64,000 nucleotides of DNA, from the NCBI GenBank assembly GCA_032433765.1, contig JAVIAB010000092.1, positions 67,093,666 through 67,157,665 of the forward strand. The letters are read 5' to 3'. Shown here piece by piece: positions 21,397 to 59,899 of the stretch. Position 1 is the stretch's first letter, and each line of letters begins with the position of its first letter. The translations under genes and the position numbers were made by a program. Under the pieces are notes generated by a model, which ran no database searches, had not been told where the DNA came from, and saw only the letters and a list, made by a program, of their open reading frames with translations. The DNA comes from Megaustenia siamemsis (lineage: Eukaryota; Mollusca; Gastropoda; Stylommatophora; Ariophantidae).

Positions 21397-21818
21397 ACTA
21401 ATGGTGCCGACAATATTCAGAGTCTTTGCTTCGAGTTGGTACCGCAAAGTTGCTTTATTATCAGTGCGGTGATAGCGTCAGATCTTTGGCTCAACATTTG
21501 TCGTCTGGACTTGTGGTGGCTCTTTCATTTCGCGGTAAGGGGTTAATGAGGTTGGGAGGGACAGGGGTGAGGGGACTTCGTAGCTCTAATTCTGTCTTTG
21601 AAGTTACATTCAAAATGTTTCACTGTTCGCCTTCATTCCCTTTGATCCCATCGTCTTGTCTTGTCCATAAAATGACCGCAACGTGTTTATTTGGTCACAA
21701 TCTTTTGATTTCATTGTCAAACACAAGTCTGTGTATAACTGTCAAATCTGGACTTATTTTCGATAGTGGACCAACATTCTGTGACTTTTAACTTTGATGT
21801 GAGATTTTGTATTAAATC

Positions 21819-22814
21819 ATGTTAAAACGTAGAAAAGTTGATTGTGAAAATCGCATATTTAAACCTGAATGGGAATTAGATTATTTGTTCATCTTCAATA
21901 AGGATAGTAAACCTCAGTGCTTAATTTGCGTTCAAGTGTTAGCCGTTTTGAAGGAATATAATTTAAAACGGCACTATGCCACACATCATCAAAACATGTA
22001 TGAGAAACATAGCATTGAAGCTAGGAAGCTTTTGGTTGAACAGCTGAAGACAAAGTTGAATCAACAGCAAAGTATGTATACAAAGGGCAATAAAATTAAA
22101 GAGTCATCGATCATTGCATCATATACAGTTACCTATGAGCTTGCAAAATCTAAAAAACCCTTTACTGACGGAAATATTGTGAAGAAATGTGCGATTCAAA
22201 TGGCAAAGGCATTCGGTCAAGAAAAAATAGCCAAAGAATTTGAATCTGTGCCTCTTTCAAAACAAACTGTAGCCAGAAGAACAGAAGACATCAGTCTGTA
22301 ACTGTCTCAAAGTTTAAAATCTTGTATTGAAAACTGCTCATATTTTTCGATCGCGATTGATGAAAGTACTGACATCACTGACACTTGCCAGCTTCTTATT
22401 TTTGTTAAAGTTATCCAGGAGGATTTTACTGTTATTGAAGAATTGTTGAAAGTTTGCTCTTTGCATGACACTTGTAGAGGGACAGACATATTTTCTGCAG
22501 TTCATAGTGCCGTAGATGAAGTAGGTGGTTTTGGAAAGTTGTCTGCAGTGTGTACTGATGGTTGCAAAGCTTTTATTGGTTCAAATACTGGTTTTGTTGG
22601 ACTTCTAAAGCAAAACAAAATTAACGTACCTACATTGCATTGCATAATTCATCAAGAGGCCCTTTGTGCAAAGTCCATAAATCTAAAAGACACCATGGCT
22701 ACTGTTGTGAAAATAACAAATTTGATAAGAGGAGGACACCAGTCTTTAAATCACAGGAAGTTTTTATCATTTTTAGAGGAAGTAGATTCTAGCTACGGTG
22801 ATCTCCTGCTTTAT
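21819..22814 (+). pseudogene. hAT transposase, N-terminal part
   Basis: The frame starts MLKRRKVDCENRIFKPEW and has a C2H2/BED-like finger (C34, C37, H52, H56). It continues through FGQEKIAKEFESVPLSKQTV, then hits a stop at 22299-22301. In the same frame it resumes with FSIAIDESTDITDTCQLLIF, the first catalytic aspartate region, and CTDGCKAFIGSNTGFVGLL and LHCIIHQEALCAK, all blocks of the GTF2IRD2/ZBED-like hAT group. The frame runs into the insertion at 22815. It would bind the ends and cut and paste the element, but this copy cannot. Confidence 0.75.
22805..22814. repeat. left 10-bp target-site duplication
   Basis: CCTGCTTTAT here is repeated at 24272-24281, bracketing the 1457-bp retro-insertion. 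The hAT reading frame resumes in register if the insert and one copy are discounted. Confidence 0.85.
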
Positions 22815-46396: not shown

Positions 46397-46493
46397 ATTG
46401 TTAACAGCGGCTGCTCACATCTATAACACCACTGAAACACACACGCAGCGGCTACTCACATCTATAACCCCTCTGAAACACACACGCAGCGGC
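46397..46493. repeat. 41-bp minisatellite, left of the Polinton
   Basis: Units of AGCGGCTACTCACATCTATA plus ACACCACTGAAACACACACGC. Two and a bit copies are here and three more continue at 56432-56555. Together they form one array that the Polinton split. Confidence 0.85.
46488..46493. repeat. left 6-bp target-site duplication (AGCGGC)
   Basis: Directly precedes the AGTAGTAG end and is identical to 56432-56437. Because the target is a 41-bp tandem array, AGCGGC is also part of each unit, but the junctions fit a simple 6-bp duplication. Confidence 0.85.
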
Positions 46494-46908
46494 AGTAGTA
46501 GCGGTGGCTGTGAACTCAACAGAAAAGTGGAATAACATGCACCGAAATACAATAGATTTGGCACCGACTTTGCACCGACTTTGCACCAAAACGGTGCCAA
46601 AAAAAAAATTATTTTTTTTTTCGAATTCGCGATTTTTTCGAACTTCATTATTTTTTGGGGGGAAAATTTTTTTTTTTGGTGTTCGTCAGTTTGTCGAATC
46701 ACTGAGAGCTTAACTCAGGTAAATTCAATAGAGACTCGGTGCTAATCCGTGTCCGGTGATCGTCTCTCGCTGTGTGTTAGAAATTTGTGAAAGAGTATTT
46801 TAAAAGAGTATGTGAAAGTAAAAATTCAGAATTATTTAAAAAATATGTATTTGTGAAAGTAAACTCAGAATTATTAAAAATAAAAAAAAATAAAAAATAA
46901 AAAAAACA

Positions 46909-46952
46909 GTCTCCCTTCAGGATTCGAACACGGGTCTACTACGTGACAGGCC
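46909..46952 (-). other. tRNA-Asp-like 3' half in the left TIR
   Basis: Read on the minus strand it gives GGCCTGTCACGTAGTAGACC followed by GTTCGAATCC, like the anticodon arm (GTC), variable loop and T arm of tRNA-Asp, and then a run of T. The 5' half with the D arm is missing. An identical copy is in the right TIR. Confidence 0.5.
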
Positions 46953-47863
46953 AGGCAACATGTAAAAAAAATGCTGACAAGCAATAACATTGAAAGGTTA
47001 GTTTTGTCGAACGGTCTCCTGTGTTTCTGAGAGCTTAACCGCAGGTAAATTCAATGGAGACTCGGTGCTAATCCGGTGATCGTCGCTCCGTGTCCGGTGA
47101 TCGCCTCGCTCGTGTTAGAAATTTGTGAAAGAGTATTTTAAAAGAGTATGTGATAAATATGTTTCAAAACGTTAAGAAATATAGTTAAATGTGATAAAAC
47201 TGATTTTTAAAAAAGGCGAAATAATAAAAACTATGAAAAAAAATAAGCTGTAAATACTGACGGAAAACTAGTCAAGAAACTGGAATGACATTTTTGTTGA
47301 CTGGGCTAGTGGTACTTGAGGAATGCTATTGTTAGAATCGCTTACAAGGAATCGTGGTCATTGTTAGGAGCTGCATTGTTAGGCTCCGTGTTTAGAGTTA
47401 AAGTTAGGTAGATGCATGTCGGGGACAGCGGTTCTAAAAGGGGGTATCTCGCGGGTCGGATGGCGGGTCGTCGTGCGGGTGGGGAAAGGTGCCTTTATTG
47501 GTTATCATCATGTGTGTGTATTAGGCAACAGGAGGCGACATGTAAAAAAAAAAATGCTGACAAGCAATTATTAGTATCGTTAGCATCATGTATTCTGACC
47601 TTCCCTCCTTGTTTTCTAACACAACTTCCTAGATTTCTGACCATGCCCCTCAACATCCCCCTTCCTACTATCATCATGTGCCTCAACACTATCATCATGT
47701 GCCTCAACACTATCAGCATGTGCCTCAACACTATCCACCCTCAACATCATCATCATGTGCCTCAACACCACCCTTCATATCATCAAGCCACACAAAGTAT
47801 CAATCATCTCTCTCACACATTCATGGTAAACCAAAACAAAACTCGTTCTATATTTCTCACAGC

Positions 47864-47869
47864 TTTATT
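47864..47869 (-). terminator. polyadenylation signal for the PC4-like gene
   Basis: AATAAA on the minus strand, 36 bases past the stop codon at 47905. It lies in the TIR, so the identical signal also serves the protease gene at the other end. Confidence 0.6.
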
Positions 47870-47904
47870 ATTAATACAACAAATATACGACACATATATA
47901 TATA

Positions 47905-48585
47905 TTACTGTCCGGTTGTTGATAATTTTAAGCGTCTGGGTTTCCTCCCTCCTGTTTTGGTGGTACTGTTTGTTAAATGTCTATCAAACACGGGTACATA
48001 GGAAGTGTCATTAGCCTTCAAAACACAACCGCCCTCCATTTTGACAAAACCTTGATCAAAGCTGGAATAGGTAATCGGTGACTCTGCTGAAACACCCGCG
48101 GCATTCATATTGGGTGCCGGATCTGTCGTCTGATTAACAAGAGTGAGGTTCCCTTGATTAACAAAGGGGGGCGTGTAGTCGATTAGATTCGTGTTAACAA
48201 GAGATGGTATGTAGTTTTGGTGGTTAACGACAGGCGGCGTGTAGTTGATCTGATTAACGAGAGGTGGCGTGTAGCTGATCTGGTTAACAACAGGCGGCGT
48301 GTAGTTGAGGTTAGCATAAGCGGTTAAAATTTCCTCTCGCATCTCGACTAACGTGATAAATTCCTCTCTCGATAGTGTTATCCCAGTTCTGGTAGGAAAC
48401 TTAAAAAAACTATCACCGCTATATGTCCTTATATTTATCAATGGTCTGTTACGAAAAACACAAACCGAGACTGCCTTAACGCCATCTTTAGACAATGGAA
48501 CTACAGTCTCATTTCCACGTGACATAAATATGCGCTGATCACTGAGATCAAACGAAATTGGCGTATTCAAGCTACACGACTCCAT
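47905..48585 (-). CDS. PC4-like ssDNA-binding protein (putative)
   Basis: A 226-residue frame starting at the ATG at 48585 (context AATATGG; a longer version begins with GTG). Residues 36-86 resemble the PC4/Sub1 fold: VSVCVFRNRPLINIRTYSG followed by FPTRTGITLSREEFITLVEM, where PC4 has its beta-strands, an R.GI.L turn and a final helix. PC4 proteins bind single-stranded or melted DNA, here perhaps for replication or transcription. Residues about 95-152 are five YTPPVVNQ-like repeats. The C-terminus is basic (RKPRRLK) and its last codons lie in the TIR. It faces outward, divergent from the ATPase. The PC4 match is by eye and should be tested by profile search. Confidence 0.6.
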   Translation of the reverse strand: MESCSLNTPISFDLSDQRIFMSRGNETVVPLSKDGVKAVSVCVFRNRPLINIRTYSGDSFFKFPTRTGITLSREEFITLVEMREEILTAYANLNYTPPVVNQISYTPPLVNQINYTPPVVNHQNYIPSLVNTNLIDYTPPFVNQGNLTLVNQTTDPAPNMNAAGVSAESPITYSSFDQGFVKMEGGCVLKANDTSYVPVFDRHLTNSTTKTGGRKPRRLKLSTTGQ

Positions 48586-48657
48586 ATTCAAAGAAAAACA
48601 AACCACCTGGCAACAGACGTTGGTTATGTGTGTGCGTGTACACTGCTCGACTGGGGG

Positions 48658-48665
48658 GTTTTATA
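48658..48665 (-). promoter_or_regulatory. TATA box for the PC4-like gene
   Basis: GGGTATAAAACC on the minus strand, about 75 bases upstream of the chosen ATG. This leaves a short leader. Confidence 0.5.
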
Positions 48666-48875
48666 CCCGTTTATCGGGTCGAGGACCGTCTATTTATAGC
48701 AGCTAACGCAATACGTTATCAGGCGTGGTAATCAGTCGTGTTGCGACATGTTCAGTGACCTCTGGAACTGACCCAATAGGGGGGTGATGTGTGGGGAAAT
48801 ATGATGCGTGTAACAATTCGGTCTCAGGTAACGCGGCTTGAGACTAGGAAACTCCTCCTCCTCCCCCCTGTCGTG

Positions 48876-48884
48876 TTTATATAG
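48876..48884 (+). promoter_or_regulatory. TATA-like box for the rightward genes
   Basis: TTTATATAG lies about 120 bases upstream of the ATPase ATG. It is the best candidate for transcription of the plus-strand cluster. Confidence 0.4.
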
Positions 48885-49004
48885 GTTGTGGATTTTAAAA
48901 ATAGGTGTTAGTTGAAGAGGGGGAAACCTCGCGCGCTGACCTAAAATCACTCGTTGTTATTTTCGTCGGGGGCGTAATCACTAAAGTTAGTAGCACTTGC
49001 GAGG

Positions 49005-49667
49005 ATGGATCCCCGATGGAATCATCCCTTCACAGCTCTGATAGCCGGTCCTACCGGGTGTGGGAAAACGGTATTTGTGCAAAAGTTTATACAGAACCTT
49101 CACGAGCTAGCTGTCCCCGTACCGGAGGAAGTTATATGGTGTTATGGGGAATGGCAGCCGATATACGAGACTATGGGGTCAGTGAGATTTATCGAGGGTC
49201 TACCAGACGTCGATAAATTGGAAGGTGGTAAGAAGAGAAGACTGATCGTCATCGATGACTTGATGTCTGAGACGGACGAGCGGGTAACAAAATTATTCAC
49301 CAAAGGTAGTCATCACAGAGATATTAGTGTGATGTACATTGTTCAAAATCTATTCGGAAAAAATAAAGAACATCGAACCATAAGTCTCAATACGCACTAT
49401 TTAGTCCTTTTCAAGAACCCGAGAGACGGGAGTCAAATTATGAATCTGGGTAAACAAATGTACCCGGGTCGGGTGGGGTACCTCCAAGATAGTTTTAAGG
49501 ACGCGACAGCGACTCCTCACGGTTATTTGCTGGTCGATCTTCGTCAGGACACACCTGATAATCTTAGGTTGAGAACAAAAATATTCCCGGGGAGAGACAA
49601 ATCGTCTACGTGCCAAAGTAGAGAATCATGTGTGATCAAGCACTTAGACGGCACGGTGAAATGTTGA
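49005..49667 (+). CDS. ATP: A32-like (FtsK/HerA) genome-packaging ATPase
   Basis: A 220-residue P-loop ATPase, the usual size for Polinton packaging ATPases. Walker A is AGPTGCGKT (residues 14-22) and Walker B is RRLIVIDDLM at about 78-87. A conserved sensor-like block (VMYIVQNLF) follows at about 110-118, then SLNTHYLVLFKNPRD. It pumps DNA into the capsid at the portal vertex in the family's viruses. ATG context GAGGATGG is good. The end overlaps the next gene by 40 bases. Frame is intact. Confidence 0.9.
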   Translation: MDPRWNHPFTALIAGPTGCGKTVFVQKFIQNLHELAVPVPEEVIWCYGEWQPIYETMGSVRFIEGLPDVDKLEGGKKRRLIVIDDLMSETDERVTKLFTKGSHHRDISVMYIVQNLFGKNKEHRTISLNTHYLVLFKNPRDGSQIMNLGKQMYPGRVGYLQDSFKDATATPHGYLLVDLRQDTPDNLRLRTKIFPGRDKSSTCQSRESCVIKHLDGTVKC

Positions 49668-49954
49668 AATGTATGCGCGCCGCCTCGCCGACCGGTTTAA
49701 GAGCCATATTAAAAACAGCCTCTCCCAAACTCATTAACTTTTTGTGCGAGTGTTGTCATAACATATTAAAAGGTAATGTTAGACTCACTCAGCGACAGAA
49801 GTGCGAGCTACGTCGACACAAGAACAAGTTGAGACTTCTCACTAAAAAGAAACCGAGTCTTAAGCGGCGGAAAGAGATTCTACAAACCGGTGGGTTCATA
49901 GGTGCTTTGCTCCGTCCTATATTAAGTATTCTCGGTGGAGTACTAGGTGCGTAA
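49628..49954 (+). CDS. small basic protein with hydrophobic C-terminus
   Basis: A 108-residue frame overlapping the ATPase end; an alternative start is the ATG at 49661. The middle is Lys/Arg-rich (QRQKCELRRHKNKLRLLTKK) and the C-terminus is hydrophobic and Gly-rich (TGGFIGALLRPILSILGGVL). Polintons commonly carry a small gene of this kind next to the ATPase. Its role is unknown; the amphipathic tail suggests virion or membrane interaction. I do not give it a function. Confidence 0.65.
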   Translation: MCDQALRRHGEMLKCMRAASPTGLRAILKTASPKLINFLCECCHNILKGNVRLTQRQKCELRRHKNKLRLLTKKKPSLKRRKEILQTGGFIGALLRPILSILGGVLGA

Positions 49955-49956
49955 CA

Positions 49957-50421
49957 ATGGCCAAAAAAATGATTTTGGTGGATCCTCGATTCCTCGAGGG
50001 TCTTAAACAGACTACTACCACGTCCTATAGCCCACCCGAGGTGATCGGTGACAACTTGAGAGATTTAGATGATGAAATGCAACGCATCCTATTCCGCGAT
50101 GATTTAGCACCCGCCGATAAGGCCAGAGTGTACCAACGCGCCCTGCATCAATATTTAACTAGATTGGAGCAGTATAAACGACGCTCATTGGGCTCGGTCG
50201 ATCTCATTCAACACAACACGGCAACAGAAAAAACACATTCCCCACCAACACCATCATTCGAGCTATCACCAGAGCAGACCAAGACACCACCACCACTACC
50301 AGCGGAAACCCCAAAGGTAGGTAATGAAACCACTCCGCCCGTAGCCACGTATAAACTGAGACCTAAAAAAAGAAAGAGCGGAATCCCAACACCAAAATGG
50401 GAACGGTGGAGAAAATATTGA
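49957..50421 (+). CDS. uncharacterised Polinton protein, Pro-rich C-terminus
   Basis: A 154-residue frame beginning 3 bases after the preceding stop. The N-terminal half looks folded and helical (MAKKMILVDPRFLEG, DEMQRILFRDDLAPADKARV, YQRALHQYLTRLEQY). The second half is a Pro/Thr-rich linker (SPEQTKTPPPLPAET) followed by a basic end (RPKKRKSGIP). It overlaps the integrase start by 25 bases in another frame. A gene in this position recurs in invertebrate Polintons, as far as I know without an assigned function. Confidence 0.65.
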   Translation: MAKKMILVDPRFLEGLKQTTTTSYSPPEVIGDNLRDLDDEMQRILFRDDLAPADKARVYQRALHQYLTRLEQYKRRSLGSVDLIQHNTATEKTHSPPTPSFELSPEQTKTPPPLPAETPKVGNETTPPVATYKLRPKKRKSGIPTPKWERWRKY

Positions 50422-51467
50422 GACGTCGTTACTTTGACCCTAGTCGACCAGGGGCGTATAGTGGTGCAACGGCCCTGCAACGTAACACCAAACTGGGACT
50501 CGCAAAGATCAAACAATGGCTGAGTCATCAAGATACCTATACCCTTCATAAACCAATTCGTCGCAGATTTGAAAGGCGTCCCATTATAACGAGTGGCCCC
50601 CAACAGCAATATCAGGCAGACCTAATCGATTTGAGACATTTGAAAAAACACAACGATGGATATTCCTATTTGGTATCTTGCGTGGACGTTTTCAGTAAAT
50701 TCGCGTGGTCTGTACCGATACGAACCAAAACGGGGAAATCCTTAGTGGAAGCCGTCGGTAAGATATTTCTCGATGGGAAACCCGCGAGTTTTCAAACCGA
50801 TAAGGGGTCAGAGTTTCTGAACAGAACATTTCAGAAATTCCTCGCTGACAACAACGTTCACTTTTTCACTACGCAGAACGAAGATATCAAGGCCGCCGTG
50901 GTGGAACGCTTTAATAGGACTCTGAAACAACGGATGTGGCGATATTTCACGAAATCCAATAAGTTGTCTTATGTCCGAGTCCTCCCCGCCCTACTTCGAA
51001 GTTATAACCATTCGTATCACAGAAGTATAAAAATGGCACCGGTCGACGTCAACGCAGACAATCAAGAGCAGGTATGGAACACGTTGTATAATAGCAAACG
51101 CAACTTTAAATTTGAAAGACCCCTGTACAAGCCCGGTGATCGAGTTAGACTGGTCCTGGGCAGAGCCAATTTTAAAAAGGGTTATGCCCCGGCTTGGACG
51201 GAGGAACTGTTTTCCATCAGTCGAGTAAACGAAACAAACCCCGTTACATATGTGTTGAAAGACGATAAGGGCGATGAGATAGAGGGGTCATTCTACACAG
51301 CGGAAATTCAAAAAGTTGGAGACAAACACGAGTACAGAATCGAGAGTGTCATAACCGAGCGTCGCACATCCTTTGGGCGAAAGGAGTGTTTAGTCAAATG
51401 GTTTGGGTACGATTCCTCATTTAACAGTTGGATACCGTCCAAGGACATTGTCAGATACAAAAACTAG
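50397..51467 (+). CDS. INT: retroviral-type integrase with C-terminal chromodomain
   Basis: A 356-residue protein of the rve family. Catalytic residues are D75 (YQADLIDL), D135 (FQTDKGSEF) and E170 (AAVVERFN), with 34 residues between the last two. The C-terminal residues, about 311-354, form a chromodomain (CLVKWFGYDSSFNSWIPSKD). It cuts and joins the element ends to chromosomal DNA, consistent with the 6-bp duplication. The chromodomain may guide insertion to marked chromatin. The N-terminal region (about 1-65) is basic with no HHCC zinc finger. ATG context (AAAATGG) is strong. The frame is intact. Confidence 0.92.
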   Translation: MGTVEKILRRRYFDPSRPGAYSGATALQRNTKLGLAKIKQWLSHQDTYTLHKPIRRRFERRPIITSGPQQQYQADLIDLRHLKKHNDGYSYLVSCVDVFSKFAWSVPIRTKTGKSLVEAVGKIFLDGKPASFQTDKGSEFLNRTFQKFLADNNVHFFTTQNEDIKAAVVERFNRTLKQRMWRYFTKSNKLSYVRVLPALLRSYNHSYHRSIKMAPVDVNADNQEQVWNTLYNSKRNFKFERPLYKPGDRVRLVLGRANFKKGYAPAWTEELFSISRVNETNPVTYVLKDDKGDEIEGSFYTAEIQKVGDKHEYRIESVITERRTSFGRKECLVKWFGYDSSFNSWIPSKDIVRYKN

Positions 51468-51469
51468 AG

Positions 51470-51784
51470 ATGCGAGAAGAAGAAGAGGAGGAAGTGGTAA
51501 CTTTTGGTGGAGAGCCCGATTTGCGAGCCGTAAACTCGGGAGTCGGGAGAGACGGCGAACCGCGCTGGTTGGGGTCGATGTTTGGGAAACTATCCCCCTA
51601 CTTAGAACTTGTCTTTATTTGTCAAGTGGTAGTTATATATACAGTTGTAGCGGTCTCGCTGTTCAATCTGACCACCGAAAAGCCAGACGCGAAGGAGGGA
51701 AAACTGTGGATAGCCCTACTGAGCAGCTGTTTGGGTTACATGCTACCGAATCCAAACTTGGAGAGGCGACGGCGAAAAGAGTAA
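51470..51784 (+). CDS. small membrane protein, two hydrophobic segments
   Basis: A 104-residue frame starting at 51470, two bases past the integrase stop (an upstream in-frame ATG at 51428 overlaps the integrase). It has an acidic start (MREEEEEEVV), a clear transmembrane segment at about 46-67 (YLELVFICQVVVIYTVVAVS), a second hydrophobic stretch at 79-91 (LWIALLSSCLGYM) and a basic end (ERRRRKE). It has no enzymatic motif. Position beside the capsid genes suggests a virion membrane or assembly role, which is inference. Confidence 0.65.
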   Translation: MREEEEEEVVTFGGEPDLRAVNSGVGRDGEPRWLGSMFGKLSPYLELVFICQVVVIYTVVAVSLFNLTTEKPDAKEGKLWIALLSSCLGYMLPNPNLERRRRKE

Positions 51785-51791
51785 AAAAAAA

Positions 51792-52370
51792 ATGAGTTTT
51801 TATGTCACCCTGCCCAGCAACGCATCTATGGAACTTTTTAAGGATAATAACCCAGGCCACTTTTTCGTTAAACTTCCTCAGACCATTGACATTTCGACGC
51901 AGTATGAGATCGCGCTGGTGGAGATACAATTTCCGCTAAATTATTTCAATGTAATAGAGGGTGATGTCTGGATTCGCTACGAATCTCTCGATAACGACGA
52001 TATTTGCGACGCCAGATTTTATTTCAACGTGACATTGGAGCCCGGGTTATATACGAAACCCGATGCGTTCATCGGCGCGTTGAACGCGTCGATCGTAAAA
52101 GCGGAGGATGAGTTGTATAGGGAAGTGAAAGGGAAAAAAATGAGATTCATTTACGCAAAAGAGGTGAATAAAGCCATCTTGAAACTTTACGAAAAAGGAG
52201 TCAGTGTTACCATAAGCGACACTTTGAAAAACATGTTAGCCTTCCCCACGACCACAATATCAGACACGGCTCCCGATATCTTCAGCGTGGGTGTAATGGA
52301 CTTGGAAAGTGTTGCGAAGAATGTCTACGTCTACTGCGATCTCGTTTCCCCAGACCGGTCGGGGATGTGA
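51792..52370 (+). CDS. mCP: penton-like minor capsid protein, N-terminal part
   Basis: A 192-residue frame starting MSFYVTLPSNASMELF, an N-terminus typical of the single-jelly-roll minor capsid (penton) protein of Polintons. It includes IDISTQYEIALVEIQFPLNY and NVYVYCDLVSP. It stops at 52368-52370 just before the C-terminal portion, which continues in another frame at 52370-52588. In relatives the protein is, to my knowledge, one polypeptide, so this is either a one-base indel near 52345-52365, a sequencing error or a real split. Confidence 0.75.
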   Translation: MSFYVTLPSNASMELFKDNNPGHFFVKLPQTIDISTQYEIALVEIQFPLNYFNVIEGDVWIRYESLDNDDICDARFYFNVTLEPGLYTKPDAFIGALNASIVKAEDELYREVKGKKMRFIYAKEVNKAILKLYEKGVSVTISDTLKNMLAFPTTTISDTAPDIFSVGVMDLESVAKNVYVYCDLVSPDRSGM

Positions 52371-52588
52371 TGGTGCCTCTCCTCAGGAGCGTGCCTGTTC
52401 TCAATAGAAATCACACCTCGGTGTTTCAGATCTACGATAAGCCTCACTACCTACCCCTGAGTAGATTTTCCTTCGATACCGTCGAGATCCTTTTAGCCAA
52501 CGAACACGGAAAAACCATTCCATTCACCAGCGGGACGTCGGTGCTAACGGTACACTTTCGAGTCAAGAAGCATCTCGAGCTGGTATAA
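52370..52588 (+). CDS. mCP: penton-like minor capsid protein, C-terminal part
   Basis: A 72-residue frame whose ATG overlaps the stop of the upstream part (TGATG). It encodes NRNHTSVFQIYDKPHYLPLS and FDTVEILLANEHGKTIPF, which belong to the same minor capsid protein. Its own stop overlaps the next ATG (TAATG). If the split is real it would need reinitiation. If it is a mutation, the penton and hence virion assembly would fail in this copy. Confidence 0.65.
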   Translation: MVPLLRSVPVLNRNHTSVFQIYDKPHYLPLSRFSFDTVEILLANEHGKTIPFTSGTSVLTVHFRVKKHLELV

Positions 52589-53082
52589 TGGTGAAACACA
52601 CTCCCCTTCATAGAGATGTTGAGTTATACGAAGACTTTTACTGTTGTCAGGCGGGCGATGGGATGCCCGTGTTTATAGGAGGTCGAAGTCAGAGCGGTCG
52701 AGGAATCGGTAGTTTCTTTGGTGGAATCGGGAGGGCTATTTTACCCTGGTTAAAAACCGGCGGTAAGGCCTTGCTCAGAGAAGGCTTGGGGACCGGTCTG
52801 CAGGTCGCACAGGACGCATTGGCCGGAAAAAATGTCGGTGAAGCTTTCAAAGAACGAGCTAAGGAGGCCGGTCAGCGGTTGCTACACGGGGCCGTAGACC
52901 ACCTGCGTGATAACGACCAATCAGGAAGTGGTTTACGTCAAAGCAGAAAGCGAGTTATGAAGCTACCTCCACCAGGAGAACCCGTTACGAAGAGGATAAA
53001 ACCGACAGCTGGACGGTTCCACCTTCATTCGGTGCACAACAGAGGGAAGAAGACGAGGGTGGCAAAGGATATTTTCGACTAA
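52588..53082 (+). CDS. pVI/pX-like glycine-rich minor virion protein (putative)
   Basis: A 164-residue frame starting one base inside the preceding stop. After GDGMPVFIGGRSQSGRG comes a Gly-rich amphipathic block (IGSFFGGIGRAILPWLKTGG, residues about 40-59), then an Ala/Lys-rich helix (GLQVAQDALAG, FKERAKEAGQRLL) and basic patches (RQSRKRVMK, RGKKTRVAK). Similar layouts occur in adenovirus-type minor core and membrane-lytic proteins, and adintoviruses carry such genes. The function here is inferred from layout and position only. Confidence 0.55.
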   Translation: MVKHTPLHRDVELYEDFYCCQAGDGMPVFIGGRSQSGRGIGSFFGGIGRAILPWLKTGGKALLREGLGTGLQVAQDALAGKNVGEAFKERAKEAGQRLLHGAVDHLRDNDQSGSGLRQSRKRVMKLPPPGEPVTKRIKPTAGRFHLHSVHNRGKKTRVAKDIFD

Positions 53083-53084
53083 TA

Positions 53085-54389
53085 ATGTCCCTCATTCACC
53101 CCAAATCGTGCGAATGTCTTCACTCTGGTTTGGATTTATTTAGCGTCCCACCCACACAGACATCTCTAGACTCTGGCCAGTTTATTGAAATTCGTCCGAT
53201 CGCAGCTTTGTCGCATAGCGCACCGATAGAGTTTTTCATTTCTGGAAACAGCGAGGAGTATCTAGATCTTTTCAACACGTTTTTACATCTGCGGGTCAAA
53301 ATCACCCTCCCGAATGGTGATAGTGTACCAGTCGATGGTGAGGTAGGACCGGTCAACAATTATCTTCACAGTCTATTTTCACAAGTCGACGTATCGCTAA
53401 ACGACACGTTGGTTACACCGTCGGAGAATACCTATCCTTTTAGAGCGGTGTTTGAGGCCACGCTAAATTACGGAGAGGATGCGAAAACAGGATACTTGAC
53501 GGCCGCTCTGTTCTACAAAGACACAGCTGGCCACCATGACGATTTGAAAGAAAATGAGGGTTTTAAAACACGGCGCGATTTGACTTCGGGTAGTAAAGAG
53601 GTTGAAATGATGGGTCGTTTGCACTCTGATGTCTTTGTGCAGGAACGTTACATGTTAAACAGAGTCGATGTAAAGATAAAACTCACGCCCTCGAAGGATG
53701 TGTTCAGCCTCGCGGCTCACGATAGCTCTGTGGGTTATAAGAGTGTTATCACCTACGCCGCGCTCGTGGTCAGGAAAGCTAAGCTAAACCCCGCGATTTC
53801 TCTGGCCCACGAAAAGGCTCTCTTGAGCGGGAATGCGCGGTACCCGATCAAGAGGGTTACCATCAAGACATTTTCCATCGCTAGCGGGATGCTCTCCCAC
53901 AGTCAAGACAATTTATTTTTGTCTCAGACACCGACCCGTATAGTGATAGGTTTGATTACGGCCAGTGCTTTTAATGGTGTTTACACAGCTAACCCGTTCA
54001 ATTTTCAACACTTTGGTCTGATTTATATGAACCTGACGGTCGACGGGAAATGTATCTCGGGAAAGCCTCTAACTATGGACTTTGAACGAAATCAATACGC
54101 GAGAGCTTTCTTCGGCACAAATCTGGCCATGGGTCTGATTGGTAAAGACGCTGGGAATAACGTTGATTATAGAGAATTCAAGGACGGATACTGCCTATTT
54201 GGTTTTGACCTCTCGTCCAGCCTACTGGACGGCTCCCATTTTGAGCTAGCCACAAGCGGACCCTTGTCGATAGAACTCAAGTTTGCCGCTCCCACCACTA
54301 CTCCCCTACAAGTTATCGTCTACGCAGAGTTGGACTCGGTGCTCGAGGTGTCCAAGACAAGGCAGATTCTAACAGACTTCGCCGTTTGA
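53085..54389 (+). CDS. MCP: double-jelly-roll major capsid protein
   Basis: A 434-residue protein placed between the minor virion protein and protease, the normal Polinton site for the major capsid. Recognisable blocks are IRPIAALSHSAPIEFFISG, NNYLHSLFSQVDVSLNDTLV, YPFRAVFEATLNYGED, ERYMLNRVDVKIKLTPSKD and, near the end, SLLDGSHFELATSGPLSIEL. It belongs to the group whose nematode relative is the transposon-derived F54H12.2 protein. It would form the pseudo-hexameric capsomers. The frame is intact over its whole length. Confidence 0.88.
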   Translation: MSLIHPKSCECLHSGLDLFSVPPTQTSLDSGQFIEIRPIAALSHSAPIEFFISGNSEEYLDLFNTFLHLRVKITLPNGDSVPVDGEVGPVNNYLHSLFSQVDVSLNDTLVTPSENTYPFRAVFEATLNYGEDAKTGYLTAALFYKDTAGHHDDLKENEGFKTRRDLTSGSKEVEMMGRLHSDVFVQERYMLNRVDVKIKLTPSKDVFSLAAHDSSVGYKSVITYAALVVRKAKLNPAISLAHEKALLSGNARYPIKRVTIKTFSIASGMLSHSQDNLFLSQTPTRIVIGLITASAFNGVYTANPFNFQHFGLIYMNLTVDGKCISGKPLTMDFERNQYARAFFGTNLAMGLIGKDAGNNVDYREFKDGYCLFGFDLSSSLLDGSHFELATSGPLSIELKFAAPTTTPLQVIVYAELDSVLEVSKTRQILTDFAV

Positions 54390-54402
54390 GAGAGAGTCGA
54401 AT

Positions 54403-54891
54403 ATGAACACGAGGGAGATTTACAACCTTTTGATGTCGGATATTTTCGTTCGACGTTGTTCCCTTGTTAGTGTCATTCCACGAAACCACTTACCGCCGAG
54501 CATCGACCCAACGGCGACCGCGGCCTTTGTCATAAACACCGACCCTGCCCACGAACCCGGTGAGCATTGGGTGGCCCTATTTTACAACGGTCTCGGCGAA
54601 TGTGAGTATTTCGATTCCTACGGTTTGCCTCCCAGACACGTGGATATTTTAAACTTTATAGAGCAAAACTCACACGTTCCATTCGTCTACAACCCGCGGG
54701 TGTTGCAAGATTTGTTTAGCAACACGTGCGGTCTATATTGTGTTTATTATATACTTCTTAAGTGTCGTGGCGCGAAACTTAACAGAATTCTCATGCCTTT
54801 TTCATCGAGACAGCACGTAAACGACCGTATCTTTTATCGTTTGCTCGTCCCGTGGATACTTCGGCTTCGAGGGGCCCGCCCAGACGCTTAA
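54403..54891 (+). CDS. PRO: adenain-like cysteine protease
   Basis: A 162-residue protein of the adenain/Ulp1 (C5/C48) fold. Catalytic residues are visible: H55 (GEHWVALFYNG), D71 (CEYFDSYGL), Q102 (RVLQDLF) and the nucleophile C109 (SNTCGLYCVYY). In adeno- and adintoviruses it matures capsid precursors. It begins 13 bases past the MCP stop. The last four codons lie in the right TIR and AATAAA follows at 54946. Frame intact. Confidence 0.9.
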   Translation: MNTREIYNLLMSDIFVRRCSLVSVIPRNHLPPSIDPTATAAFVINTDPAHEPGEHWVALFYNGLGECEYFDSYGLPPRHVDILNFIEQNSHVPFVYNPRVLQDLFSNTCGLYCVYYILLKCRGAKLNRILMPFSSRQHVNDRIFYRLLVPWILRLRGARPDA

Positions 54892-54945
54892 AATTATCAA
54901 CGACCGGACAGTAATATATATGTGTCGTATATTTGTTGTATTAAT

Positions 54946-54951
54946 AATAAA
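54946..54951 (+). terminator. polyadenylation signal after the protease gene
   Basis: AATAAA 55 bases after the protease stop, within the TIR. It is the same signal as at 47864-47869 in mirror image. Confidence 0.6.
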
Positions 54952-55039
54952 GCTGTGAGAAATATAGAACGAGTTTTGTTTTGGTTTACCATGAATGTGT
55001 GAGAGAGATGATTGATACTTTGTGTGGCTTGATGATATG

Positions 55040-55280
55040 AAGGGTGGTGTTGAGGCACATGATGATGATGATGAGGGTGGATAGTGTTGAGGGTGGCACA
55101 TGATGATGATGATGAGGGTGGATAGTGTTGAGGCACATGATGATGATGATGAGGGTGGATAGTGTTGAGGCACATGATGATAGTAGGAAGGGGGATGTTG
55201 AGGGTGGCACATGATAGTGTTGAGGCACATGATGATAGTGTTGAGGCACATGATGATAGTAGGAAGGGGGATGTTGAGGG
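55040..55280. repeat. tandem repeats in the right TIR
   Basis: Units of GGCACATGATGATGATGATG and AGGGTGGATAGTGTTGA in alternation. The left TIR has a shorter version at 47645-47770. Frames through it are His/Ser-rich artefacts. Confidence 0.85.
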
Positions 55281-55972
55281 GCATGGTCAGAAATCTAGGA
55301 AGTTGTGTTAGAAAACAAGGAGGGAAGGTCAGAATACATGATGCTAACGATACTAATAATTGCTTGTCAGCATTTTTTTTTTACATGTCGCCTCCTGTTG
55401 CCTAATACACACACATGATGATAACCAATAAAGGCACCTTTCCCCACCCGCACGACGACCCGCCATCCGACCCGCGAGATACCCCCTTTTAGAACCGCTG
55501 TCCCCGACATGCCTCTACCTAACTTTAACTCTAAACACGGAGCCTAACAATGCAGCTCCTAACAATGACCACGATTCCTTGTAAGCGATTCTAACAATAG
55601 CATTCCTCAAGTACCACTAGCCCAGTCAACAAAAATGTCATTCCAGTTTCTTGACTAGTTTTCCGTCAGTATTTACAGCTTATTTTTTTCATAGTTTTTA
55701 TTATTTCGCCTTTTTTAAAAATCAGTTTTATCACATTTAACTATATTTCTTAACGTTTTGAAACATATTTATCACATACTCTTTTAAAATACTCTTTCAC
55801 AAATTTCTAACACGAGCGAGGCGATCACCGGACACGGAGCGACGATCACCGGATTAGCACCGAGTCTCCATTGAATTTACCTGCGGTTAAGCTCTCAGAA
55901 ACACAGGAGACCGTTCGACAAAACTAACCTTTCAATGTTATTGCTTGTCAGCATTTTTTTTACATGTTGCCT

Positions 55973-56016
55973 GGCCTGTCACGTAGTAGACCCGTGTTCG
56001 AATCCTGAAGGGAGAC
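55973..56016 (+). other. tRNA-Asp-like 3' half in the right TIR
   Basis: GGCCTGTCACGTAGTAGACC, then GTTCGAATCC and a T-run that would end polymerase III transcription. Mirror copy of 46909-46952. Confidence 0.5.
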
Positions 56017-56431
56017 TGTTTTTTTTATTTTTTATTTTTTTTTTATTTTTAATAATTCTGAGTTTACTTTCACAAATACATATTTTTTAAATAATTCTGA
56101 ATTTTTACTTTCACATACTCTTTTAAAATACTCTTTCACAAATTTCTAACACACAGCGAGAGACGATCACCGGACACGGATTAGCACCGAGTCTCTATTG
56201 AATTTACCTGAGTTAAGCTCTCAGTGATTCGACAAACTGACGAACACCAAAAAAAAAAATTTTTCCCCCCAAAAAATAATGAAGTTCGAAAAAATCGCGA
56301 ATTCGAAAAAAAAATAATTTTTTTTTGGCACCGTTTTGGTGCAAAGTCGGTGCAAAGTCGGTGCCAAATCTATTGTATTTCGGTGCATGTTATTCCACTT
56401 TTCTGTTGAGTTCACAGCCACCGCTACTACT

Positions 56432-56437
56432 AGCGGC
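56432..56437. repeat. right 6-bp target-site duplication (AGCGGC)
   Basis: Follows directly on CTACTACT and is identical to 46488-46493. Confidence 0.85.
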
Positions 56438-57486: not shown

Positions 57487-59899
57487 AAGGTGACCATATT
57501 TTTGAAATCCCATTCCGGGACGGAATAATTTTACTTCAATTTTCCACCAATAAAATTACATTTCTTCTTGCTGTCATTTTCAAGTGAATAATACATACAT
57601 TTTAAAACATCTAATAATATAGACTTACAATACGCTATCAGGATAGTCAGGAGATAAAAAAAAACAGTGATACTCACTTAAATTGAAGGTGTAACAGAGA
57701 TACTTTTCAGATGAGTGAATTTTCTGTAAAATGTCCTTCTTTGTATGCAGCATCTTATAAAATTCGACACATGTTCCCTCATAGTTCACTTTGGTGATCA
57801 ACATGGCTTTTAAAGTTTCAACACCTAGTTGTGTTTTATCATTTGTCCACAAACTGTTCATCAGAGAAAACACTCGTTCTGTTGCAGCATTTGTTCCAGG
57901 TAGACACAAAAAGAACTCTGCCAACTTCAGAATATGTGAAACGGGCACATGATTGTTTCTGAAGTGGGAAGCTAGTTCAACCCAACGCTGCCCTGGTAAT
58001 GTTTTATTAAGACTCCACTCACTAATTTTTTGTGAAGTAACGAACTGTTTCATGTAGACATATTCGTCATACATTTCATTTTCTGGAAAGTCGACTGAAG
58101 GCACTGTTTGACTCACTAATGATGAAGACTTCTCAATATCTTCCCAATTTGGTGTTCTGTTCAGCATTACCCAGCTGTAAGACTCTAGGTTTTGAAAATT
58201 ATTTGCAGCCCATTTCTTCAAATAACTTAAAGCTGTTTCATAAAATGAAGAAACACTGGCGTTAAACTTTTTCACATCATCACGTGGAAATCCTTCCATT
58301 TCCAGCTTTTTAAGGATTATCTGAACTCTTGATGGCAAGAAGCCGTCTCCAGCTTGGACTCCAAGATAGCTTTCAACTTATTGATATTGTCAATGACTTC
58401 AAATACAGTGACCATCTGTCCCTCTACTTTCTGCACTGCTTCGTGGAAAGAGGATGCCTGACTGTGAACCAAAATAAGCCATGCCTCAGACAGTGGGTTT
58501 TCAAAGAATTCCTGTATAAAAACTGGGCATCTGTCTTGAGATTGAAAATATGATTTTAGAGGCAGGAACATGTAAAGAACCCTTTCAACAGCAGGCAAGA
58601 GCGCAAGCCACCTAGTTTGTGCATAACCTAAAATCATCTGGAAGTCTATGTCGACAAACTGACAAAACTCCTTGAGACTTTCAACTCTAACTGTGTATGA
58701 TTTGAAGTACAGATAAACTTTTCCAATAGTCATTTCAACATCAACAGTCTGCAGCTGCTCGAACAGTGTTGTGGAAAATATGGCAAGCACACCCAACACC
58801 TATCAAACTATGTCCAAGGTTTTCTTTCAGTTTTGTGAAAACATTGTTCTGTCCTTTTCTTTCAGCGCCCCCAAAATTAGAATTTGTGTTGTCTGCACAT
58901 AATCCAACTACTTTCAGTTCTAAACCATTTTCAGTTAGACAGTCAATAAGAAAACTACTTACTATATCAGATGTTTCACCCGGCAATGACTTCAACTCTA
59001 ATATTTTAACTTTCAGTCCCTTATTGCGATCAAAGTATCTGACAAGCAAAGGAAAAATCTTGATTTCTTTGTGGTTGGAGGCATCTGTCAGTATGGAGAT
59101 AAATGTTACGTTTTCTAGATCACATCTCAACTCGTTTAGAGCATGGGGTGTGAACACATTCCGAATAATAGCTTCTGTTTTCGTACGTGCACAAGCAAAT
59201 TTTGGTTCTAAAGTTACCTGAAGCAATTTTGATGTGCAGTCCATAGATCTAAACGTGTGATTGTGCATCACTGTATGATATGCAAAGGCACCTTCTGTAG
59301 CAGCTAACTGTTCTTCTTTGTCACCAACTTGTTCAGCTCGAAAAAAATTTGTCAACGAGCTTGATGCAGCAGTAGCGACGGCTCTCTTATGTTTATCACT
59401 ATTTATGTGGCTCTTAATATCACCACGTCCACTATGGTTAATAGTAAACCCGGATGAACATATATTACATCTTACAGTGAAGTCTGATGACGATGTAGAC
59501 TTTTTTATAAAAGGGTATTCCTTTTGTAAATCTTGATTAAAACTACAATTACGCTTCGGTGCCATTTTTTGCGAAAGTGAAAGTGAAAGTTAGTAACACA
59601 ACGTATATATACGAGATTTAAAACTAGGAACGCATTCTACTGTTTTGATATTAAACAAAATTGTCTACACAGCAACGGAATAATATTTTTTTTAATTGAA
59701 GAAATGTACGCCGTATACCAAAATGGCAAAATTGGTAAACGTTTGTGTCCCAAATTATTTTTTATCAAATCCGGGACAAAAGCTAAAAAATATGCCAAAA
59801 TCGGGACAAAACCGGTACGGCAGCTAATCCGGGACAAAGGTTCAAAAAATGTCAAATTCCGGGACTGTCCCGGACAATCCGGGACGAATGGTCACCTTA
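57487..59899 (-). mobile_element. hAT-type DNA transposon with TIRs and 8-bp duplication
   Basis: The ends AAGGTGACCAT and ATGGTCACCTTA are inverted repeats flanked by ATATATGT (57479-57486 and 59900-59907). The right end also contains TCCCGG-rich short inverted repeats. It carries one transposase gene on the minus strand with two frameshifts. The complete outer structure implies a fairly young insertion. Confidence 0.8.
57625..59565 (-). pseudogene. hAT transposase, two frameshifts
   Basis: The N-terminal frame (59565-58741) begins MAPKRNCSFNQDL and has a BED-like finger with C33, C36, H53 and H59, then FISILTDASNHKEIKIFPLL (first catalytic region), VVGLCADNTNSNFGG and GVGCACHIFHNTV. A frameshift near 58745 leads to 58799-58317 (VYLYFKSYTVRVESLKEFCQ, RWLALLPAVERV). 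A second near 58330 leads to 58338-57625, with the dimerisation domain (LAEFFLCLPGTNAATERVFS). It is recognisably one transposase but not functional as read. Confidence 0.75.

What the first reader, a model, noticed from the sequence alone, without database searches (positions are those of the whole stretch)
46494..56431. Compact Polinton with complete virion module but no DNA polymerase B
The element is bounded precisely by terminal inverted repeats and a 6-bp duplication, so its gene content is complete. It has integrase, packaging ATPase, minor and major capsid, protease and four small genes, yet no pPolB, the defining replication gene of canonical Polintons. The only non-coding gap between the TIRs is about 420 bases, leaving no room for a roughly 3-kb polymerase. 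It may replicate with host enzymes or parasitise a polymerase-bearing relative, as a satellite with its own capsid.
Basis: partly seen in the sequence, partly recalled or inferred. Interest (0 to 1): 0.9.

Follow-up and report, generated by a model that had tools for sequence, protein, structure and literature searches.

The report
Virus-like transposon split into two elements
One large genome holds at least 97 copies of the capsid gene of a roughly 10-kb virus-like transposon that has an integrase but no DNA polymerase, and also separate elements with the same ends that carry the polymerase and, as far as they were read, none of those genes, so the two likely depend on each other like the halves of a split viral genome.

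Summary
The element at 46494-56431 is a TIR- and TSD-bounded Polinton relative with integrase, ATPase, capsid genes and protease, and no PolB. 121 PolB queries find nothing, and a control shows that 40-60-aa remnants would be seen. This is not a chance deletion. In 17 of 20 genome copies examined (own copy included) the same left end stands: TIR, an intact PC4-domain gene, about 420 bp, ATPase. None of 20 has PolB. The genome gives at least 97 capsid-gene matches at 99-100% identity.

The same genome carries polymerase elements with the same termini. Three of three examined run TIR, PolB, TIR in 8.5-10.5 kb; no ATPase, integrase or capsid gene was found in what was read. A fourth has the window's own 27-mer as its right end. 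Three capsid copies have TIR ends 95-97% like a polymerase element's but 85-89% like the window's. The nearest of 97 capsid loci is 89 kb from any of 105 PolB loci. Of 68 end pairs, 67 are 12 kb or shorter.

Best reading: a split, two-component Polinton whose halves complement each other in trans. Mutual dependence is inferred. No published bipartite Polinton was found in my searches.

The parts
46488..46493 (.). left copy of the 6-bp target-site duplication AGCGGC
   Evidence: read directly; in register with a 41-bp minisatellite
46494..47940 (+). left terminal inverted repeat, 1,447 bp, begins AGTAGTAG
   Evidence: 2 substitutions in 1,439 aligned letters to the right TIR
47905..48585 (-). 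PC4-domain protein, 226 aa (predicted single-strand DNA-binding protein), next to the ATPase where L001 has PolB
   Evidence: PF02229 E 1.1e-7, 31.7 bits, cut-off 25; frame of 226 or 236 aa open in 17 of 20 copies; codon usage better than nearly all of 500 shuffles
48586..49004 (.). non-coding gap between the divergent PC4 and ATPase genes (likely promoters)
   Evidence: 10 small frames in and around it match no Pfam family better than E 0.1; 96-100% conserved in 17 copies
49005..49667 (+). packaging ATPase
   Evidence: 57% identical to L001 ATPase, E 2e-80; Walker A GPTGCGKT; Pfam hits under cut-off
49628..49954 (+). small basic protein, 108 aa
   Evidence: 38% to the L001 counterpart, E 1e-10
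49957..50421 (+). small protein, 154 aa
   Evidence: same place in L001; N-terminal likeness seen by eye only, no tblastn match
50397..51467 (+). rve integrase with chromodomain
   Evidence: PF00665 E 7e-13, PF00385 E 6e-6; 46% to L001, E 1e-98
51470..51784 (+). small protein with a likely membrane segment
   Evidence: 49% to L001, E 3e-11; the membrane segment is judged by eye
51792..52370 (+). penton (minor capsid) gene, broken in this copy
   Evidence: matches L001 and L002 in two frames; 11 of 20 copies open at 265 aa; the name penton is inferred from position and recalled anatomy
52588..53082 (+). small basic virion-type protein
   Evidence: 33% to L001, E 6e-16; function inferred
53085..54389 (+). 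[quoted passage not shown]
   Evidence: 1,734 homologues; model pLDDT 77.7 matches iridovirus, PBCV-1 and Sputnik capsid proteins, E 1e-15 to 2e-14
54403..54891 (+). adenovirus-type cysteine protease
   Evidence: PF00770 E 5e-4, just under cut-off; 38% to L001, E 4e-27
54879..56431 (-). right terminal inverted repeat, 1,553 bp
56432..56437 (.). right copy of the duplication AGCGGC
   Evidence: read directly

Best explanation
This is the capsid-and-integrase half (element A) of a Polinton that likely works as a two-part genome, the other half (element B) being a separate TIR-bounded element that carries the predicted protein-primed DNA polymerase. Shown: A lacks PolB in every left part examined; no ATPase, integrase or capsid gene was found in the B elements as far as they were read; both have AGTAGT termini, related TIRs and 6-bp duplications; both are in many copies. 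Inferred: B's polymerase starts on the shared AGT-repeat ends of A and B; A's PC4 protein coats the displaced single strand; A's integrase inserts both; A's capsid packages both. Inferred too: terminal sequence is all an element must carry to be copied and inserted, since palindromic copies are also TIR- and TSD-bounded and non-coding derivatives are TIR-bounded. The split probably arose from an ancestor with PolB next to the ATPase, as in L001.
For: A-layout without PolB in 17 of 20 left parts; the other 3 lack part or all of that layout, also without PolB. PC4 frame open in all 17. 97 capsid matches at 99-100%, 93 of 97 without a stop. PolB loci in the same genome (33 scored); a piece of B's PolB gives 105 matches at 88-100%. 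Three of three B elements examined: C123 10,532 bp, TSD GTCATG; C87 10,191 bp, TSD CCCGTC; C51 8,494 bp, flanks alike in 5 of 6; no A gene in 9 pieces. A fourth PolB locus (C26) has the window's exact 27-mer as right end, with TIR 98.5% over 393 bp and 86% over 437 bp. TIRs look exchanged between A and B; three capsid matches lie between B-type ends. A and B fragments occur in one palindromic element. Nearest capsid locus to a PolB locus 89 kb (97 by 105) and 1.2 Mb (97 by 33). 67 of 68 end pairs at most 12.0 kb; in 11.5 kb read of the 15.1-kb one there is no PolB or capsid but a LINE fragment. Palindromic copies with TSDs, and a third AGT at some left ends, fit protein-primed strand-displacement copying.
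Against: No transcript, particle or replication product was seen; dependence is inferred from gene content. Only 100 of 562 A-type ends were listed, and ends were paired only within one pattern, so longer elements elsewhere are not excluded. The capsid list holds only matches of 99% or more, so an autonomous Polinton with a diverged capsid could be missed. About 2.5-3 kb left of PolB in C87 and the left part of C26 were not read. Among the 18 closest B PolB rows (94-100%), only C123 and C87 have frames near 1,600 aa; C124:83285146 has 1,381 and C26 1,133. The more numerous 88-91% PolB group was checked only downstream of PolB in 3 cases: no A gene, but no TIR of this family either. In 9 of 20 copies, the window's included, the penton frame is not full length, and in 1 of 20 the protease.
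Confidence: 0.62

Rival explanations
1. One-way satellite: A borrows the polymerase of autonomous, full-length Polintons in this genome, and B elements are by-products.
For: Other PolB groups are present, with frames of 1,376-1,497 aa and main matches 44-51% like L001 PolB; L001 shows that PolB-plus-capsid elements of this lineage exist.
Against: B elements share A's ends, and TIR parts are up to 97-98.5% alike. Of 68 end pairs only one is long enough to hold both gene sets, and neither was found in what was read of it. No listed capsid locus is near a listed PolB locus. Three PolB loci of the 88-91% group have no ATPase or other A gene within 3 kb downstream.
Confidence: 0.17
2. A and B are independent deletion remnants of a lost full-length element; both were copied by it and are now stranded.
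For: Palindromic and non-coding derivatives with the same ends are present, so deletion and recombination are frequent; most of the 18 closest PolB rows have shortened frames.
Against: PC4 frame open in 17 of 17 and capsid frame without a stop in 93 of 97. PolB frames of 1,602 and 1,595 aa without a stop. Window TIRs differ by 2 substitutions in 1,439 letters. No PolB remnant is left at the junction.
Confidence: 0.13
3. A is copied by host DNA polymerases, perhaps recruited by the PC4 protein, and needs no PolB.
For: PC4 is recalled as a host single-strand-binding co-activator; the gene sits beside the ATPase where L001 has PolB.
Against: The AGT-repeat ends typical of PolB-bearing Mavericks are kept, left ends vary by one AGT, and polymerase elements share the ends. 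None of this is needed for host replication.
Confidence: 0.05

Closest known systems
Polinton / Maverick (polintoviruses, adintoviruses)
   Same: rve integrase with chromodomain, ATPase, penton, double jelly-roll capsid, protease, TIRs, 6-bp TSD, 5'-(AGT)2 ends (PMC8097293 passages and section 7)
   Different: The 9.9-kb element has the core enzymes and capsid genes but no PolB, which sits on a separate element with shared ends. Intact vertebrate Mavericks are 12.7-24.6 kb with PolB inside. The small genes were not compared with PM, PZ and PW.
L001, contig QGON01000029.1 in a tubeworm-symbiont MAG (probably animal DNA)
   Same: same gene order from ATPase to protease; capsid 42% identical
   Different: carries PolB directly upstream of the ATPase on the same strand
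Bidnaviridae
   Same: two linear segments with long TIRs and a Polinton-derived PolB (PMC4061559, passages)
   Different: ssDNA, parvovirus-type capsid and helicase, 6-6.5-kb segments in separate capsids; no integrase is mentioned in the passages read
Polinton-like viruses and virophages
   Same: shared capsid/ATPase module; many protist elements lack a detectable polymerase (PMC10120064, passages)
   Different: mostly lack rve integrase and PolB and encode other replication proteins (PMC11071308, passages); known virophages and some PLVs depend on giant viruses

Membership tests
Polinton / Maverick | protein-primed PolB in the element | tested here: not met
   0 hits with 121 PolB queries, power control passed; 0 of 20 copies
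Polinton / Maverick | rve integrase with chromodomain | tested here: met
[quoted passage not shown]
Polinton / Maverick | penton, packaging ATPase, adenovirus-type protease | tested here: met
   by similarity to L001; Pfam scores under cut-off for ATPase and protease; penton broken in this copy, open in 11 of 20
Polinton / Maverick | TIRs, 6-bp TSD, (AGT)2 ends | tested here: met
   9 of 11 other copies with exact TSD, 2 of 11 exact if one extra AGT belongs to the left end; end motif
Two-component (bipartite) Polinton | missing gene carried by a separate element with the same ends | tested here: met
Two-component (bipartite) Polinton | each part needs the other for copying, packaging and insertion | not testable with these tools
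   gene content only
Bidnaviridae | parvovirus-type capsid protein | tested here: not met
   capsid model matches double jelly-roll proteins
Virophage / satellite of a giant virus | depends on a giant virus | not testable with these tools
   no such virus looked for

The most novel reading that the evidence does not exclude
The first multipartite Polinton: an animal virus-transposon whose genome is split into a capsid/integrase/PC4 segment and a polymerase segment, each near 10 kb, co-replicated from shared ends, packaged under a size limit near 12 kb and inserted separately, with TIRs exchanged between segments and a cloud of palindromic cheats.
Probability: 0.55. Interest if true: 0.93.

Novelty: new variant of a known kind. 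Interest (0 to 1): 0.87.

Why it matters
Polintons are known as self-synthesising elements, with polymerase and integrase in one unit. A lineage that keeps them on separate, recently multiplied elements would show how a multipartite DNA virus can arise inside a genome. It gives a natural test of the idea that multipartite viruses evolve from cheats (title and abstract of PMC10159356 seen in a listing), and parallels the bidnaviruses, bipartite viruses with a Polinton-derived polymerase. It also offers genomic traces of the copying mode (AGT slippage, palindromes) for elements whose particles had not been observed as of PMC8097293 (abstract in a listing).

Tried and rejected
Simple deletion of PolB in one copy: rejected, since the same layout stands in 17 of 20 copies. 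Hidden or diverged PolB: rejected (the longest stop-free frame in the core, 491 codons, is the capsid's). Chance TIR/TSD: rejected (pattern controls 0). Relatives in IMG/VR: five scans gave none. PC4 homologues: none at E 0.01 among 173 candidates. Structure of the PC4 protein alone: pLDDT 33, useless. PHROGs gave nothing better than E 0.02 and Rfam nothing. The capsid excess of synonymous change (25 codons synonymous only, 5 with amino-acid change) is not used as proof of selection, because those 20 copies were picked by protein score. The first run of that count had minus-strand copies unturned and was replaced. A tree places L001 far from the window, so L001 shows ancestral order only by inference. 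Contig lengths hits were not used.
Full report
Observation. The element at 46494-56431 is real and precisely bounded. TIRs of 1,447 and 1,553 bp differ by 2 substitutions in 1,439 aligned letters, plus indels, so the insertion is young. The duplication AGCGGC lies in a 41-bp minisatellite. Genes, left to right: PC4-domain protein (minus), ATPase, two small genes, rve integrase with chromodomain, small membrane-type protein, penton, small basic protein, major capsid protein, protease. The capsid model matches double jelly-roll proteins of iridovirus, PBCV-1 and Sputnik. The penton frame is broken in this copy; 11 of 20 copies examined, own included, have it open at 265 aa.

No PolB. The related contig L001, from a tubeworm-symbiont MAG and probably animal DNA, has the same order but with PolB directly upstream of the ATPase. 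L001's PolB and 120 further PolB proteins (the listed hits) find nothing in the window's element, while a control recovers 67 of 69 PolB pieces of 40 aa and 68 of 68 of 60 aa. In the place of PolB stand 419 bp and the PC4 gene. Vertebrate Mavericks (PMC8097293, passages and section 7) carry PolB with the same enzymes and capsid genes; the small genes PM, PZ and PW were not compared. The end motif (AGT)2 is their commonest.

Sister copies. The window lies in a 2.59-Gb genome of 155 contigs. The capsid protein has 97 scored matches at 99-100% identity, 93 without a stop; the tool calls such counts lower bounds. Of 20 left parts fetched (own copy included), 17 have TIR-PC4-gap-ATPase with a PC4 frame of 226 or 236 aa and 414-493 bp to the ATPase. 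Three (L030, L037, L039) lack part or all of it. None of 20 has PolB. TSDs: 9 of 11 other copies exact; the other 2 are exact if the left end has a third AGT. The sample came from the list of best capsid matches and is biased to intact copies.

Partner elements. L001's PolB finds PolB loci in the same genome (33 scored). Three with the longest frames were examined piecewise. C123:48088154-48098685 (10,532 bp, TSD GTCATG, frame 1,602 aa), C87:17174075-17184265 (10,191 bp, TSD CCCGTC, 1,595 aa) and C51:140763518-140772011 (8,494 bp, flanks alike in 5 of 6, one stop) each run TIR, PolB, TIR. In 9 pieces of them none of 9 A proteins is found, nor the penton. Left of PolB there are a 102-aa frame and a minus-strand frame, conserved between C123 and C51 (94.8% over 2.9 kb). 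A C-terminal piece of this PolB has 105 scored matches, 18 at 94-100% and 87 at 88-91%. One of the 18, at C26, lies between ends listed (9,820 bp apart), and its right end is the window's own 27-mer; its TIR is 98.5% like the window's over 393 bp and 86% over 437 bp, and no A gene follows PolB there; its left part was not read. Downstream of three PolBs of the 88-91% group no A, L001 or L002 gene was found within 3 kb, nor a TIR of this family.

Shared ends. The exact pattern AGTAGTNNNNGTGGCTGTGAACTCAAC occurs 288 + 274 times, and the variant ending in GG 38 + 40 times; reversed controls 0. Of these 640 matches 178 were listed (100 of 562 and 78 of 78); they give 37 + 31 facing pairs. 67 of 68 are 1.3-12.0 kb. 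In the 11.5 kb read of the one of 15.1 kb there is a LINE fragment and no PolB or capsid. The capsid locus nearest to any of 105 PolB matches is 89 kb away, to any of the 33 1.2 Mb. Outer TIR comparison (430 bp): copies L032, L034, L041 are 95-97% like B_C51 and 85-89% like the window, though their PC4 gene and ATPase start are 99-100% like the window's; L039, L040 and L042 have a third, distant TIR type. Three capsid matches lie between B-type ends. L075, the middle 5 kb of an 11.4-kb pair, is a palindrome that holds a piece of A's penton (190 bp, 96%) and a piece of B's PolB (410 bp, 88%). A and B have thus very probably shared sequence and a copying compartment.

Copying mode. Three inverted capsid pairs are palindromic copies bounded by TIR ends and TSDs, two exact and one with an extra AGT. 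C47 has only part of the integrase gene and no PC4 or ATPase gene; C1 has no integrase gene; C124 keeps the integrase region in one arm but no PC4 or ATPase gene. C47 and C1, like the B elements, were inserted as units without a whole integrase gene of their own, so enzymes must have acted in trans (inference). Palindromes and AGT-number changes fit protein-primed strand-displacement replication with jumping back, as recalled for adenovirus; not shown.

Verdict. Element A is not a canonical Polinton, because PolB was tested and not met. It is best seen as one half of a two-component Polinton. Listings of searches for PolB-less, non-autonomous, bipartite, segmented or complementing Polintons gave no such report; near cases are protist elements without detectable polymerase (PMC10120064, passages), genomes with adenovirus-class virion genes but no recognisable PolB or integrase (PMC11071296, passages), and bidnaviruses (PMC4061559, passages). 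The library lacks most subscription journals, so the claim is limited to it.

Noticed in passing
G000 C47:28414502-28421465, C124:62877108-62883690, C1:18837316-18842495 (L043-L051): Palindromic copies with the capsid gene in both arms, bounded by TIR ends and 6-bp duplications; snap-back type products.
   Followed up: partly
L074 (C24:63546264-63554831) and pairs of 8.5-8.6 kb at C8, C24, C46: A recurrent roughly 8.6-kb size class; the one read in its middle is a non-coding palindrome with pieces of PC4 and integrase.
   Followed up: partly
L075 (C1:3027874-3039289): Palindrome holding a fragment of the capsid element's penton and a fragment of the polymerase element's PolB.
   Followed up: partly
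left ends of L026, L029, L030 and the C124 palindrome: Three instead of two terminal AGT repeats at the left end; where the right end was read (L026, L029, C124) it has two.
   Followed up: partly
L065 (C124:93136600-93140200), L064 (C51:46640400-46644700): PolB genes of another group stand head to head around near-perfect palindromes (99.8% and 97%), with no end of this family seen.
   Followed up: no
G000 C41:37481592 and C50:34035834: Two B-type ends lie about 1.2 and 0.7 kb from PolB genes of another group but face away from them; perhaps nested insertions.
   Followed up: no
window 47905-48585: PC4-domain gene in a Polinton relative; no paper in the library holds both words.
   Followed up: partly
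window 57625-59565 (-): Broken hAT-type transposase frames just right of the element (one passes the Pfam cut-off).
   Followed up: no
window 21816-22301 (+): Spin-doc type zinc-finger frame (PF18658), otherwise unexamined.
   Followed up: no
L001, L002: Contigs of this element family binned in bacterial MAGs, probably host contamination.
   Followed up: partly
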